DNA of 64,000 bases from a virus. Numbering within the stretch: position 1 is the stretch's first letter; each line of letters starts with the position of its first letter. Location of the stretch: IMG/VR virus record IMGVR_UViG_3300021962_006679, positions 1 to 64,000 of that record. One strand, 5' to 3'. The notes under the pieces were generated by a model that was given only the letters and a program-made list of their open reading frames with translations, did no database searches and had not been told where the DNA came from. The position numbers and the translations under genes were made by a program. This document shows positions 2,301-39,225 of this stretch, piece after piece.

Positions 2301-3197
2301 GTGAAAATATCTTCCAGTAATGAATGGGACCAGTTACGGTCTATAATTGTAGGCACTGCCAATTATGCAAATTGGCCAGTACATTGTCCTGACTTCAGGA
2401 AACAAGAACAAACAACTCTATGGACTGAAACTCCATTGCCAGCTGGGCCTGTACCAGATTATATTATACAGGAAGCTAACCAGGATCTCGATTATTTAGT
2501 TAGCTTTTTAGAGGGCTGCGGAATAACGGTATACAGGCCTACTGATATCAACTTCCAGGAAACAGACGGATTTTATAACTATTGTCCTAGAGATAGACTG
2601 CTGATACTTGATAATGATATCATAGATTGTCCAATGGCCTATGGTTGCAGGGATCAGGAATATGCTGCATATGACTTTTTACCACAGGATTGGGTACCAG
2701 CATTAGGGCACTGGGATGCTGCAAATGTTTGTAGACTTAATGATGATTTACTCTATCTTAAAAGTGAAAGCGGAGACCTGGCAGGCTATAGGTGGTTGTC
2801 AGATTACTATGCAGACAAGCGAGTACATCTAGTAGAGTGTTATAGTGGTGTTCATATTGACAGCACTATTGTTCCAGTAAGAGAAGGCCTAGTAGTTTTA
2901 AATGCGGCCCGAATAACAGAAGATACTGTACCAGCACCACTAAAAAACTGGGACAAGATATGGATTCATGAATGTGCACACCAACCTTTTATTAACTATC
3001 CCTATGCTAGTAATTGGATAGGAATTAACTTCCTAGTCGTTAATCCTAATAGCGTCGTGTGCGATCCCAACCAAGAGTTTTTACGGAGAGAATTAGATAA
3101 GTATAATATAGACTCTCAGGGTATAGATTTGAGACATAGTAGGACATTGGGTGGTGGGCACCATTGTGTTACTCTCGATTTACATCGTGAAGAATAA
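2301..3197 (+). CDS. Amidinotransferase (glycine amidinotransferase-like, guanidino-modifying superfamily)
   Basis: The 298-residue protein resembles L-arginine:glycine amidinotransferase. Catalytic motifs are in order: the N-terminal NEWDQLRSIIVG, a WDAANVCR segment (Asp139), the HIDSTIVPV histidine segment (His185) and GGGHHCVTLDLHRE, whose Cys289 would be the covalent nucleophile. The family moves an amidino group from arginine to an amine, or hydrolyses guanidines. It is shorter than GATM (about 360-420). It starts with GTG at 2301, because the ATG two bases upstream runs at once into TGA, and no strong SD is seen. Substrate unknown. Glycine, the GATM acceptor, is also the substrate of the cleavage system served by the nearby GcvH, which is suggestive only. 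Confidence 0.82.
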   Translation: MKISSSNEWDQLRSIIVGTANYANWPVHCPDFRKQEQTTLWTETPLPAGPVPDYIIQEANQDLDYLVSFLEGCGITVYRPTDINFQETDGFYNYCPRDRLLILDNDIIDCPMAYGCRDQEYAAYDFLPQDWVPALGHWDAANVCRLNDDLLYLKSESGDLAGYRWLSDYYADKRVHLVECYSGVHIDSTIVPVREGLVVLNAARITEDTVPAPLKNWDKIWIHECAHQPFINYPYASNWIGINFLVVNPNSVVCDPNQEFLRRELDKYNIDSQGIDLRHSRTLGGGHHCVTLDLHREE

Positions 3198-35927: not shown

Positions 35928-36668
35928 ATGGCCCGTAATGATTACAATAGTACTTATGATGTCCGCGACGTAATGGCAGCGAGTGTGATGGCATATCGCA
36001 TCAATGGTGATGAATACTGTGCTTTTACAGTAGGTGATGACGTTTGGACTGGCAGGGAATCGACTGAATACCGTATTGTTAAACAGGCAAACAAGCATCT
36101 GATGCAGTATAGTATGACAGATATGCAAGTGCCGGTAACTATTAGTTATCCAGTGGGCAACTATTATTTTGATATTGAAGCTGATGAGGAAGACTATGCT
36201 GTAGCAGACGAAATGATCAGCTACTACAGTGGGCTTATGCTCAAGGCAATTAGCGGTAAAATTAACGAGTTTGAAGAGCGTGTACTGGGACTTATAAAGA
36301 CCGGCACAGTTTCTGTTAAAGACTTTGGTATTATTGCAAGTCTTCCCAAGAGTTATTTCCGTAGTTTGGAACGGGATGAGGTAGAAGAAAAGCAACGCCA
36401 GTTAAGTGACACTAGCGAGTTTATAGGACAAATTGGTCACACTGTTGATTTGATTATTAGAGTATTGCGGTGTAATTATATACAGAAACTGAGCTGCTAT
36501 GTTGTTAATGCAGTCCATAACGGCAACCTAGTTGTATTTTTTACCAGTACTGGAGAGTTTGAAAACATAGATAGTGTTAGGGTTAGGGCTCGTATAAAGC
36601 GGCACCAAACCAGTTCATATCATGGTGGTAAAGAAACTGTTTTAAATTATGTCAAAAAGATGGCATAA
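35928..36668 (+). CDS. Hypothetical protein, 246 aa
   Basis: The start is ATG with AAGGATCGAAC upstream. The N-terminus STYDVRDVMAASVMAYRING and the centre EADEEDYAVADEMISYYSGL suggest a mixed fold. The C-terminal third has VVNAVHNGNLVVFFTSTGEF and basic RVRARIKRHQTSSYHGG, possibly nucleic-acid binding. Not recognised. It is followed by a structured RNA. Confidence 0.75.
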   Translation: MARNDYNSTYDVRDVMAASVMAYRINGDEYCAFTVGDDVWTGRESTEYRIVKQANKHLMQYSMTDMQVPVTISYPVGNYYFDIEADEEDYAVADEMISYYSGLMLKAISGKINEFEERVLGLIKTGTVSVKDFGIIASLPKSYFRSLERDEVEEKQRQLSDTSEFIGQIGHTVDLIIRVLRCNYIQKLSCYVVNAVHNGNLVVFFTSTGEFENIDSVRVRARIKRHQTSSYHGGKETVLNYVKKMA

Positions 36669-36825: not shown

Positions 36826-36853
36826 TTGACGTTATCGTATTCTATGCTAATAT
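36826..36853 (+). promoter_or_regulatory. Early-type promoter with extended -10
   Basis: TTGACG at 36826-36831, a 16-bp spacer ending TGC, and TAATAT at 36848-36853. Confidence 0.8.
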
Positions 36854-36885: not shown

Positions 36886-37143
36886 ATGCTCGGAATGAAA
36901 TTTACAAATTCTAAAGACCTAGACTTTGATGTCCTAATGCCAGGGATTGTTGATGCTTGGTTTTCCTCTAACACTCCAGATGACATTGTTAGGATTTTTG
37001 AAACTGCAAGTGGCGATTTCGACTTATGGATAGGCCGCCAACAGTTTGCCGCTTTCGAAACATTTGAAGACGCCAAGCGTCATGCAGAGTGTTTCGTTAC
37101 CGTAGAAATTACAGCAGAAGATTTAGGAGTTAAATTGATATGA
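36886..37143 (+). CDS. Hypothetical protein, 85 aa, with a replaced 3' end
   Basis: AAGGACCAGACAA precedes the ATG. The protein reads MLGMKFTNSKDLDFDVLMPG with FDLWIGRQQFAAFETFEDAK and ends VTVEITAEDLGVKLI. The last 35 bases before the final codons (37096-37130) recur exactly at 38619, where the same frame ends DLGVSPI. This suggests that the original end was displaced by the restriction-modification cassette. Function unknown. Confidence 0.72.
   Translation: MLGMKFTNSKDLDFDVLMPGIVDAWFSSNTPDDIVRIFETASGDFDLWIGRQQFAAFETFEDAKRHAECFVTVEITAEDLGVKLI
37096..37130 (+). repeat. Left copy of a 35-bp perfect direct repeat
   Basis: Identical to 38619-38653. It encodes VTVEITAEDLG, and its TTAGGAG also acts as SD for the restriction-enzyme-like gene. 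Confidence 0.95.
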
Positions 37144-37718
37144 ACGAAATTCAAAAAGTAGCAGATTACATTAATACTCATATGGACTTTCCTAGATTTG
37201 CAAGATTATGTGTTGCTTTAGGAAGTCAAGTAAATGATGCCCAATTACGTTTTATAAAAGCATTGGTTTTTGAACGTAGTATGGAACAATATTCTAAAGG
37301 TAAAATTAAGTTTGTAGGTGAAGAAGGGTGTGACCTTATTATACCAGAGTTAAATGTAAGAGTAGAACAAAAGTATACTGAAGACGCTTTGTTTACGCCT
37401 AAAAAAAAGACTCTCAGAGAAAACACTAAGAGTATTAAACTTATGAACAGTATGGGGACCAATACCCATAATAAGTTGCCGGAAACCTATGCTGATTATT
37501 TAATTTTTATTGGGAACCAGGCAGCAATGTTATTCTCTAAACAAGATTTAGAGCAACATTTACAGGTTGGAGGAGATGGCATAAGTGCTAATATCCCGAC
37601 ACGCAAAGGAATCCTACTTGCATCGCCTATAGACATGGATGCTAACAATCAGACTCAAATAGATTTTATTTCAGGATTTATGAAGTATATTGACAGTTAC
37701 ATACAATCTGTTAAATAA
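37140..37718 (+). CDS. Putative PD-(D/E)xK restriction endonuclease
   Basis: The 192-residue protein has GCDLIIPELNVRVEQKYTED, which fits the D...ExK metal-binding core (Asp, then Glu-Gln-Lys) of PD-(D/E)xK nucleases, and TYADYLIFIGNQAAML as the following strand. It overlaps the upstream stop (ATGA) and precedes a DNA methyltransferase by 7 bp, the normal layout of a type II restriction-modification pair. The family assignment is by motif and context only. Confidence 0.6.
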   Translation: MNEIQKVADYINTHMDFPRFARLCVALGSQVNDAQLRFIKALVFERSMEQYSKGKIKFVGEEGCDLIIPELNVRVEQKYTEDALFTPKKKTLRENTKSIKLMNSMGTNTHNKLPETYADYLIFIGNQAAMLFSKQDLEQHLQVGGDGISANIPTRKGILLASPIDMDANNQTQIDFISGFMKYIDSYIQSVK

Positions 37719-37725
37719 TATAGAT

Positions 37726-38592
37726 ATGTATAAAGTAGAAAACAAAGATTGCATTCAAGGCCTTAAAGATCTTGGAGATGGATCAATTGATTTAATATTC
37801 ACTGATCCTCCATATGGAATTGACGGTGATAAATTAGATGCACACTACAACCGAGACGAAAGCAATGTAGTTCCTGGTTATGTTGAAGTGGCTCTCGAAA
37901 CTTATGGAGAATTTAGTAAAAACTGGATTACAGAATGTGCTCGTGTTTTAAGGCCAGGCGGCAGTATGTACATAGTCAGTGGATATACTAATTTACATCA
38001 TGTGCTAAATGCACTACATAGTACAGATTTACAAGAAGTTAATCATATAATTGCAAAATATACATTTGCTGTTAGTACTACAAAAAAATGGGTTAGTAGT
38101 CATTATCATGTATTATTTTGGGCAAAGCCTGATAAGGGAAAACAAAAGAGAACATTTAACACGAACGTTTTCTATACAGACCAAAAAGACAGTTATCATG
38201 ATAGACTTACAGTCCAGGACTTGCCACGAGATTATAAACCTGGCCAGATAAAAAACAAAAACCAATTAAGTGAAGAGTTTATCAAGAAATTTATTTTATA
38301 CAGTTCTAACAGAGGCGACACTGTACTAGATCCTTTTTGTGGAGGATTTACTACAGCACGTACAGCATTAAGGTATGGACGCAAATTTGTAGGTTTTGAA
38401 TTAAATAGCAATGCGTATAATGCATTTTTACCTACCCTAGATAATGTAATATCTATGGAAGATCCTATACCTGAACAACCAAATCCAGAAGAACTAGCAA
38501 GAAGAGAAAAGATGCGAGAAGGTTGGCGGGCTGATAGACGTAAGCGTAAGGAAAACCCTGTATATGATCCTGGAGGCGTTTTTAAAACTTAA
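37726..38592 (+). CDS. DNA adenine-N6 / cytosine-N4 methyltransferase
   Basis: The start is ATG 37726 (MYKVENKDCIQGLKDLGDGS). The 288-residue protein has the catalytic motif IV FTDPPYG near residue 29 first and the SAM motif VLDPFCGGFTTARTALRYGR near residue 208 later, the beta-class order (type II M.MunI-like). DPPY indicates amino-methylation of adenine or cytosine. It would protect DNA against the adjoining nuclease, or mark phage DNA on its own. Confidence 0.9.
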   Translation: MYKVENKDCIQGLKDLGDGSIDLIFTDPPYGIDGDKLDAHYNRDESNVVPGYVEVALETYGEFSKNWITECARVLRPGGSMYIVSGYTNLHHVLNALHSTDLQEVNHIIAKYTFAVSTTKKWVSSHYHVLFWAKPDKGKQKRTFNTNVFYTDQKDSYHDRLTVQDLPRDYKPGQIKNKNQLSEEFIKKFILYSSNRGDTVLDPFCGGFTTARTALRYGRKFVGFELNSNAYNAFLPTLDNVISMEDPIPEQPNPEELARREKMREGWRADRRKRKENPVYDPGGVFKT

Positions 38593-38618
38593 AATTGGTT
38601 GACAATACACATAAACAT

Positions 38619-38653
38619 GTTACCGTAGAAATTACAGCAGAAGATTTAGGAGT
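38619..38653 (+). repeat. Right copy of the 35-bp direct repeat
   Basis: Identical to 37096-37130. The frame continues GVSPI then stop, so this copy looks like the original 3' end of the 85-aa gene. The bases just before it hold TTGACA but no good -10. Confidence 0.95.
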
Positions 38654-38676
38654 AAGCCCAATTTAGTAGCACCTTA

Positions 38677-38684
38677 GATAAATA
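38677..38684 (+). promoter_or_regulatory. T4-type late promoter box placed for a leaderless mRNA
   Basis: GATAAATA ends 5 bp before the ATG at 38690. No SD. Confidence 0.6.
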
Positions 38685-38689
38685 GATGC

Positions 38690-39211
38690 ATGAAACACAT
38701 GCATCATATTATCCCAAAACACGCAGGTGGCACTGACGATTCTAGTAATTTAATAGAACTTACTATAGAAGAACATTCAGAAGCACATCGTAACTTGTAT
38801 GAACAGTATGGCAGACAAGAAGATTATCTTGCCTGGAAAGGACTTGCTGGATTAATAGGCAAGGAAGAAATGTTAAAAGCAAAACTTTCGTTAAACTCGT
38901 CTCGTCCTGGAAAATTAAATACCTTTTATGGCATGAAACACACAGAAGAAACCAAACGCAAAATATCAGAGAAGAAAAAAGGCGTTAGTATTAAAATGCC
39001 TCCAAAGTCTAAAGCACACAAGAAGAAACTTTCTGAGGCCAGACGTGCAATGGCTAAACGCTATGTTTTTGAGCATAAGGATGGCAGCACATTTACGGGC
39101 ACGACTCGTGAACTTTCTGAGATCACCGGCTCAAATCCAGCAGAACCATGGAAGTTAGTTGTTGGGCAATATAAGACACACAAGGGCTGGAAACTGATTG
39201 ACTCATTGTAG
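38690..39211 (+). CDS. NUMOD3/HNH homing-type endonuclease
   Basis: The 173-residue protein begins with an HNH nuclease half (HHIIPKHAGGTDDSSNLIEL, EEHSEAHRNLYEQYG) and then NUMOD3 DNA-binding repeats (NTFYGMKHTEETKRKISEKK, KSKAHKKKLSEARR), ending with a small NUMOD-like region (HKDGSTFTGTTRELSEITGS). Free-standing enzymes of this build promote their own spread in T4-like phages. It stands 37 bp after the right repeat of the restriction-modification cassette. Confidence 0.9.
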   Translation: MKHMHHIIPKHAGGTDDSSNLIELTIEEHSEAHRNLYEQYGRQEDYLAWKGLAGLIGKEEMLKAKLSLNSSRPGKLNTFYGMKHTEETKRKISEKKKGVSIKMPPKSKAHKKKLSEARRAMAKRYVFEHKDGSTFTGTTRELSEITGSNPAEPWKLVVGQYKTHKGWKLIDSL

Positions 39212-39225
39212 ATTCATGCTATTAT
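39198..39225 (+). promoter_or_regulatory. Early-type promoter with extended -10
   Basis: TTGACT at 39198-39203, a 16-bp spacer ending TGC, and TATTAT at 39220-39225, directly ahead of the ATG at 39231. That leaves room for only a very short leader. Confidence 0.75.

What the first reader, a model, noticed from the sequence alone, without database searches (positions are those of the whole stretch)
36886..39211. Restriction-modification cassette inserted into a gene end, bounded by a 35-bp perfect repeat, beside a homing-type endonuclease
The 35 bases at 37096-37130 recur exactly at 38619-38653, in the same reading frame (VTVEITAEDLG). Between them lie a PD-(D/E)xK-like nuclease gene and a beta-class DNA methyltransferase. 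Excising 37131-38653 restores a gene ending DLGVSPI, so the unit appears to have entered the 3' end of a small gene and rebuilt it, while the repeat supplies the SD of the nuclease gene. A NUMOD3/HNH endonuclease stands 37 bp after the right repeat. This looks like a selfish restriction-modification element moved by homing-type recombination, with no transposase.
Basis: partly seen in the sequence, partly recalled or inferred. Interest (0 to 1): 0.88.

Follow-up and report, generated by a model that had tools for sequence, protein, structure and literature searches.

The report
Duplicated scar beside phage restriction genes
In an uncultivated T4-like virus of bacteria, a small restriction-modification gene cluster is joined to a separate selfish homing-endonuclease gene, and the striking 35-base repeat is most likely a scar of that join rather than the footprint of the cluster jumping into a gene.

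Summary
The repeat is real: 37096-37130 equals 38619-38653, the only direct repeat of 20 bp or more in the window. Between the copies lie a PD-(D/E)XK nuclease (model nearest restriction enzymes) and a beta-class methyltransferase. About ten other phage lineages carry the same adjacent pair, none with a flanking repeat.
The inferred mechanism changes in three ways. (1) The supposed restored gene end "SPI-stop" comes from the left end of the endonuclease element: homologs share CCCARTTTAG...ATAAATA there, behind unrelated genes. (2) That endonuclease is a MobE-like free-standing homing gene tied to the downstream 5'-nucleotidase-like gene in all four closest homologs. No relative links it to the restriction pair. 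(3) The right copy starts inside the -10 box of a phage promoter behind the methyltransferase, with GTTA shared at the joint. This fits an illegitimate recombination joint better than target-site duplication. A weak p85 relative lies upstream of a truncated nuclease and the methyltransferase in L199, so p85 is probably the unit's own first gene.
Extra finding: in two syntenic phage pairs the nuclease gene alone has been replaced while the methyltransferase stayed.

The parts
36826..36853 (+). early-type promoter TTGACG-N16-TAATAT with extended -10, in front of p85
   Evidence: TTGAC-N14-TGYTANNNT: 7 in the window, all on +, against 0.11 expected
36886..37143 (+). p85: 85-aa gene of unknown function, probable first gene of the restriction-modification operon
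   Evidence: no family match; weak relative upstream of nuclease remnant and MTase in L199
37096..37130 (+). left copy of the 35-bp repeat, 3' end of p85, carries the Shine-Dalgarno of the nuclease
37140..37718 (+). PD-(D/E)XK nuclease, putative restriction endonuclease, 192 aa
   Evidence: homologs 26-61% next to the same MTase, invariant D65 and ExK motif; AF2 pLDDT 85.5; nearest PDB folds DpnI, ThaI, NhoI
37726..38592 (+). beta-class N6-adenine/N4-cytosine DNA methyltransferase, 288 aa
   Evidence: PF01555 E 2.7e-31; TDPPYG before DPFCGG; CcrM, MboIIA and RsrI among PDB relatives
38599..38626 (+). promoter remnant or hybrid, TTGACA-N16-TACCGT; its -10 straddles the start of the right repeat copy
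   Evidence: promoters also follow the MTase in L004, L009, L010, L011
38619..38653 (+). right copy of the 35-bp repeat, a detached p85 tail
38657..38684 (+). conserved left end of the HNH element, CCCAATTTAG...GATAAATA (late-promoter-like octamer at 38677-38684)
   Evidence: shared with L096, L097, L099 behind unrelated genes
38685..38705 (+). hairpin GATGCATG-AAACA-CATGCATC around the HNH start codon
   Evidence: folding z -6.55; a different but perfect stem at the same place in L096-L099
38690..39211 (+). HNH/NUMOD3 free-standing homing endonuclease (MobE-like)
39198..39225 (+). promoter of nt5c, its -35 embedded in the 3' end of the HNH gene
   Evidence: and comparison with L016, L023, L025
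39231..39815 (+). 5'-nucleotidase-like gene (NT5C), the constant right neighbour of the HNH element
   Evidence: PF06941; adjacent to HNH in L096-L099

Best explanation
The locus joins two independent mobile modules at a variable site between a conserved gene (35928-36668) and nt5c. Module 1 is a phage restriction-modification operon, probably p85-nuclease-methyltransferase, read from its own early promoter. The methyltransferase would mark the phage genome and the nuclease would cut unmarked DNA of the host or a rival phage (inferred). Module 2 is a MobE-like free-standing HNH homing endonuclease with its own conserved left end, a late-promoter-like octamer and a hairpin over its start codon, linked to nt5c. 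The 35-bp repeat is a scar. An illegitimate joint fused the promoter behind the methyltransferase, at GTTA in its -10 box, to the tail of a p85 copy that leads into the HNH element. This happened either by recombination between two phages that both carried p85, anchored by homology on one side, or by a templated copy of 35 bp during break repair. The joint keeps a TTGACA-16-TAnnnT promoter that may serve HNH and nt5c. Shown: the sequence anatomy, the homologs and the HNH boundaries. Inferred: the joining event, its order and the enzyme activities.
For: The nuclease-MTase pair recurs in about ten other phage lineages without flanking repeats (longest 9-14 bp). HNH homologs 73-75% identical carry the same left block behind unrelated genes and sit directly before nt5c homologs. 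L033 shows L096's upstream gene running into nt5c without HNH. Syntenic relatives L016, L018, L023-L025 lack both modules at this site, and L026 has other genes there. The right copy starts in a -10 box: 7 such promoters against 0.11 expected, and relatives also have a promoter right after the MTase. A p85-like gene precedes a truncated nuclease and this MTase in L199: best non-self hit of 36,507 ORFs, E 0.07; 0 of 5000 shuffles as good. Microhomology-driven duplication linked to a free-standing homing endonuclease is documented in phage T6 (PMC13096335).
Against: No phage with p85 directly before HNH, and none with p85 intact before nuclease-MTase, was found, so neither partner is seen. The p85/L199 similarity is weak. 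The nuclease and MTase have lower third-position GC (0.26 and 0.22) than p85, HNH and nt5c (0.34-0.35), which would suit a nuclease-MTase unit separate from p85. GTTA is only four bases.
Confidence: 0.6

Rival explanations
1. Insertion with long target duplication: the nuclease-MTase unit (37131-38618) entered the 3' end of a resident p85 gene that already preceded HNH and duplicated 35 bp of it, as proposed for some bacterial restriction-modification systems (Nobusato 2000 and Furuta 2010, cited in PMC3031569 and PMC3874152).
For: Exact direct repeats precisely flank the unit. Nuclease and MTase have lower GC3 than p85 and HNH. Precedent of long and variable target duplications for such systems.
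Against: No empty p85 site. No repeats around the same unit elsewhere. The start of the repeat also completes a promoter -10 box, unexplained by a blunt duplication. A p85-like gene is linked to the unit in L199.
Confidence: 0.2
2. Homing-type mobility of the restriction unit by the adjacent HNH enzyme: HNH cuts the uninterrupted p85 end and the pair is copied in with it.
For: HNH adjoins the right repeat; co-conversion of flanking genes is well known for T4 homing endonucleases (PMC2988022), so occasional hitch-hiking is likely.
Against: HNH and the pair do not travel together in any relative found. HNH is linked to nt5c instead.
Confidence: 0.08
3. The 35-bp repeats work as a recombination pair: the unit they flank can be lost or tandemly amplified by phage recombination, a dosage or on/off switch for the restriction genes.
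For: Perfect, same-orientation repeats with an in-frame outcome after loss; direct-repeat amplification of restriction units and segmental amplification in T6 are known.
Against: No such repeat around homologous units; no site-specific recombinase signature; one contig gives no copy-number evidence.
Confidence: 0.07
4. Assembly chimera of two related phages across a short repeat.
For: Inference only, no tool result: a metagenome contig, and a repeat shorter than a read is a usual place for errors.
Against: Both copies are present, and the joint from promoter to GTTACC is not itself inside a repeat.
Confidence: 0.05

Closest known systems
Type II restriction-modification systems with a beta-class MTase and a PD-(D/E)XK endonuclease
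   Same: adjacent nuclease and MTase; MTase motif order and family; nuclease model nearest DpnI, ThaI and NhoI
   Different: phage-borne; an extra small gene in front; the nuclease is also found without an adjacent MTase of this family and is exchanged for other nucleases beside one MTase; specificity unknown
Free-standing Mob/HNH homing endonucleases of T4-like phages (Aeh1 mobE, T4 mobA-E; PMC2988022)
   Same: HNH plus NUMOD3, intergenic, late promoter plus hairpin over the translation start, downstream promoter embedded in the gene's 3' end
   Different: linked to an nt5c-like gene; the predicted late start falls on the A of the ATG (leaderless, inferred); cleavage untested
Restriction-modification units inserted with long target duplication (Nobusato 2000; Furuta 2010)
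   Same: restriction genes between exact direct repeats
   Different: no empty site; repeat edge lies in a promoter; unit lacks repeats in all relatives; 35 bp where about 100 bp is usual
Homing-endonuclease-driven segmental duplication in T6 (SegB; PMC13096335)
   Same: short-homology duplication next to a free-standing homing endonuclease in a T4-like phage
   Different: there whole segments amplify in tandem under selection; here a single 35-bp partial copy

Membership tests
Type II restriction-modification system | DNA methyltransferase with catalytic and SAM motifs | tested here: met
   PF01555 E 2.7e-31; TDPPYG invariant and the DPFCGG region conserved in 8 homologs
Type II restriction-modification system | restriction endonuclease of a known fold | tested here: met
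   conserved D...ExK (the ExK of L009 is shifted in the alignment); Foldseek best DpnI E 1.5e-3 prob 0.99, then ThaI and NhoI; TM-scores only about 0.4, no sequence-family match
Type II restriction-modification system | nuclease and MTase genetically linked | tested here: inconclusive
   adjacent in about ten other lineages, but some nuclease homologs have no adjacent MTase of this family (L268-L275, L286 and others)
Type II restriction-modification system | same DNA site cut and methylated | not testable with these tools
   needs enzymes or long-read methylation data
Free-standing HNH homing endonuclease | HNH catalytic motif with NUMOD DNA-binding repeat | tested here: met
   PF01844 and PF07460 above cut-off; PHROG 655 homing endonuclease E 3.6e-19
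Free-standing HNH homing endonuclease | presence/absence polymorphism at one site in related phages | tested here: met
   L096 with HNH against L033 without, between the same genes; window against L016, L023-L025
Free-standing HNH homing endonuclease | cuts the endonuclease-less allele and spreads in crosses | not testable with these tools
   needs cleavage and co-infection assays
Restriction-modification insertion with long target duplication | direct repeats at both ends | tested here: met
Restriction-modification insertion with long target duplication | empty site with one repeat copy in a relative | tested here: not met
   no uninterrupted p85 in IMG/VR or the phage records; absence is not proof
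Transposon | terminal inverted repeats or transposase | tested here: not met
   no inverted-repeat pair at the unit's ends and no transposase gene

The most novel reading that the evidence does not exclude
A family of T4-like phages from metagenomes carries a restriction-modification operon with a constant methyltransferase and an exchangeable nuclease gene, plus an accessory protein of the p85 type. Phages would swap nuclease alleles by recombination through conserved neighbouring genes, and the 35-bp-flanked unit in this phage could be gained, lost or amplified.
Probability: 0.25. Interest if true: 0.65.

Novelty: new member of a known kind. Interest (0 to 1): 0.42.

Why it matters
It shows how a 'target duplication' can be misread: the second gene end was supplied by a neighbouring homing element, and the repeat edge lies in a promoter. 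It adds a phage nuclease family with restriction-enzyme-like fold, found beside one MTase family in many phages. It also shows two natural cases of nuclease replacement next to a conserved methyltransferase, which bears on how phages acquire and change restriction genes.

Tried and rejected
Looked for p85 relatives by peptide patterns in IMG/VR, tblastn on phages, and Pfam, PHROGs, NCBIfam and PADLOC: none; only L199 emerged from ORF comparison. p85 model poor (pLDDT 59) and its structure matches meaningless. Inverted repeats and transposase: none relevant. Rfam on the locus and on neighbours: nothing. Genome collection: MTase relatives mostly 22-31%, best 50% in an archaeal MAG with no nuclease of this family beside it, so no clear bacterial source. 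Nuclease by sequence against PDB: nothing meaningful. A first promoter pattern with the wrong spacing gave no match and was corrected.

Full report
Observation. The two 35-base copies are exact and in the stated places. They are the only direct repeat of 20 bp or more in the window, where shuffles reach 15-18. The window is part of an 81,328-base IMG/VR virus record and the repeat occurs nowhere else in it. Gene content (sliding-clamp loader, PhoH; named from my reading of the translations) and homologs point to a T4-like phage; the host is unknown.

The genes between the repeats. The methyltransferase matches PF01555, has TDPPYG ahead of DPFCGG (beta-class order) and is 68-79% identical to proteins in many IMG/VR phages. 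The upstream nuclease has no family match, but its homologs (26-61%) conserve a D...ExK signature. The model (pLDDT 85.5) matches DpnI, ThaI and NhoI restriction enzymes best in the PDB (best E 1.5e-3, TM about 0.4) and a cyanophage S-SM1 protein of unknown function best among viral models. The pair is adjacent in about ten other lineages (L001, L004, L008, L009, L010, L011, L266, L276, L278, L280, L287). Some nuclease homologs stand without an adjacent methyltransferase of this family (L268-L275, L277, L285, L286, L288, L289, L296), so the reading as a restriction-modification system is likely but not proven.

No repeats in relatives. The longest exact direct repeat between the flanks of the pair is 9-14 bp, or shorter, in eleven compared loci, against 35 in the window (in L004 only 257 bases of the right flank were available).

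The HNH element. Homologs L096-L099 (73-75%) share the block CCCARTTTAG-AG-ACCTT-ATAAATA with window 38657-38684, behind genes unrelated to p85. Hence 'AGC CCA ATT TAG' (SPI-stop) is the left end of the HNH element, not a restored p85 end. In L096 the same block likewise supplies the last codons of an unrelated upstream gene. In all four homologs the gene after HNH is an nt5c homolog. L033 has the L096 upstream gene running directly into nt5c, an HNH-less allele. The -35 box of nt5c's promoter lies in the last codons of the window HNH gene; promoters embedded in free-standing endonucleases are known from T4 (PMC2988022). A late-promoter-like octamer GATAAATA (TATAAATA in L096-L099) ends five bases before the ATG. 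The ATG lies in a strong hairpin (z -6.55). L096 and L097/L099 differ there by a compensated pair (C-G against T-A), and the window has a wholly different but perfect stem. This resembles the hairpin and late-promoter control of Aeh1 mobE and I-TevI. That the transcript is leaderless is my inference from the spacing.

The joint. The pattern TTGAC-N14-TGYTANNNT occurs seven times in the window, all on the + strand, against 0.11 expected. One match, 38599-38626, starts seven bases after the methyltransferase stop, and its -10 box contains the first bases of the right repeat copy. In relatives a promoter also follows the methyltransferase (L004, L009, L010, L011, read by eye). The first four bases of the repeat, GTTA, both complete the usual TGYTA of this promoter type and belong to p85. 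A blunt target duplication would give that agreement in roughly one case in 128 (my estimate). A microhomology joint explains it.

What p85 is. No relative was found in large searches. Among 36,507 ORFs from the fetched loci the best non-self match (E 0.07) is a 98-aa gene in L199. It is followed by a truncated remnant of the nuclease C-terminus and then this methyltransferase. Shuffled p85 never reached the score in 5000 trials, and the remnant exceeded 1000 shuffles against the window nuclease. I therefore think p85 belongs to the operon. The lower GC3 of nuclease and methyltransferase than of p85 speaks mildly against this.

The site. Relatives L016, L017, L018, L023, L024, L025, L026 and L060 keep the gene at 35928-36668 and nt5c but differ in between (57-2217 bp). 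L026 has a DndB-like gene plus another HNH gene there (named by my reading; no library match for the first). The site is a hot spot for exchangeable genes.

Nuclease exchange. L009 and L010 align at 84-90% over about 9.5 kb except for the nuclease gene, which is replaced exactly between the upstream gene and the methyltransferase. L008 and L005 align at 76-87% around a nuclease that in L005 is an unrelated ORF with DYHHIEQKSG. Mobility of single components of restriction systems has been noted before in bacteria (PMC3874152).

Verdict. The claimed mechanism (insertion into a gene end that is rebuilt, moved by the HNH enzyme) is not supported. The simplest account is an illegitimate joint between two ordinary phage modules, which left a 35-bp partial copy of p85.

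Noticed in passing
L009:4349-4993 against L010:4463-5017; L008:4406-4984 against L005:4373-5005: Nuclease gene replaced between otherwise 76-90% identical phages while the methyltransferase next to it is kept; in L005 the replacement is unrelated.
   Followed up: partly
L026:3841-5645 and L264:1259-2958: A DndB-like gene followed by an HNH-type gene sits at the window's hot spot in L026, and a similar pair lies between the methyltransferase and the nuclease in L264; possibly another mobile defence-like module.
   Followed up: no
L016, L017, L018, L023-L026, between the gene homologous to window 35928-36668 and nt5c: G+C-rich, structured-looking intergenic stretches with shared motifs and no Rfam match; possibly an undescribed phage RNA.
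   Followed up: partly
L199:2609-2995: Truncated nuclease remnant before an intact methyltransferase, apparent decay of the nuclease with the methyltransferase kept.
   Followed up: partly
window 38685-38705 and L096, L097, L099 upstream of HNH: Start codon of the HNH gene in a hairpin with compensated changes, five bases after a late-promoter octamer; possible leaderless late translation.
   Followed up: partly
L101 and L103 near 2870-3000: A more distant HNH homolog stands divergently next to an nt5c homolog and shares part of the CCCAATCTAG...GATAAATA block.
   Followed up: no
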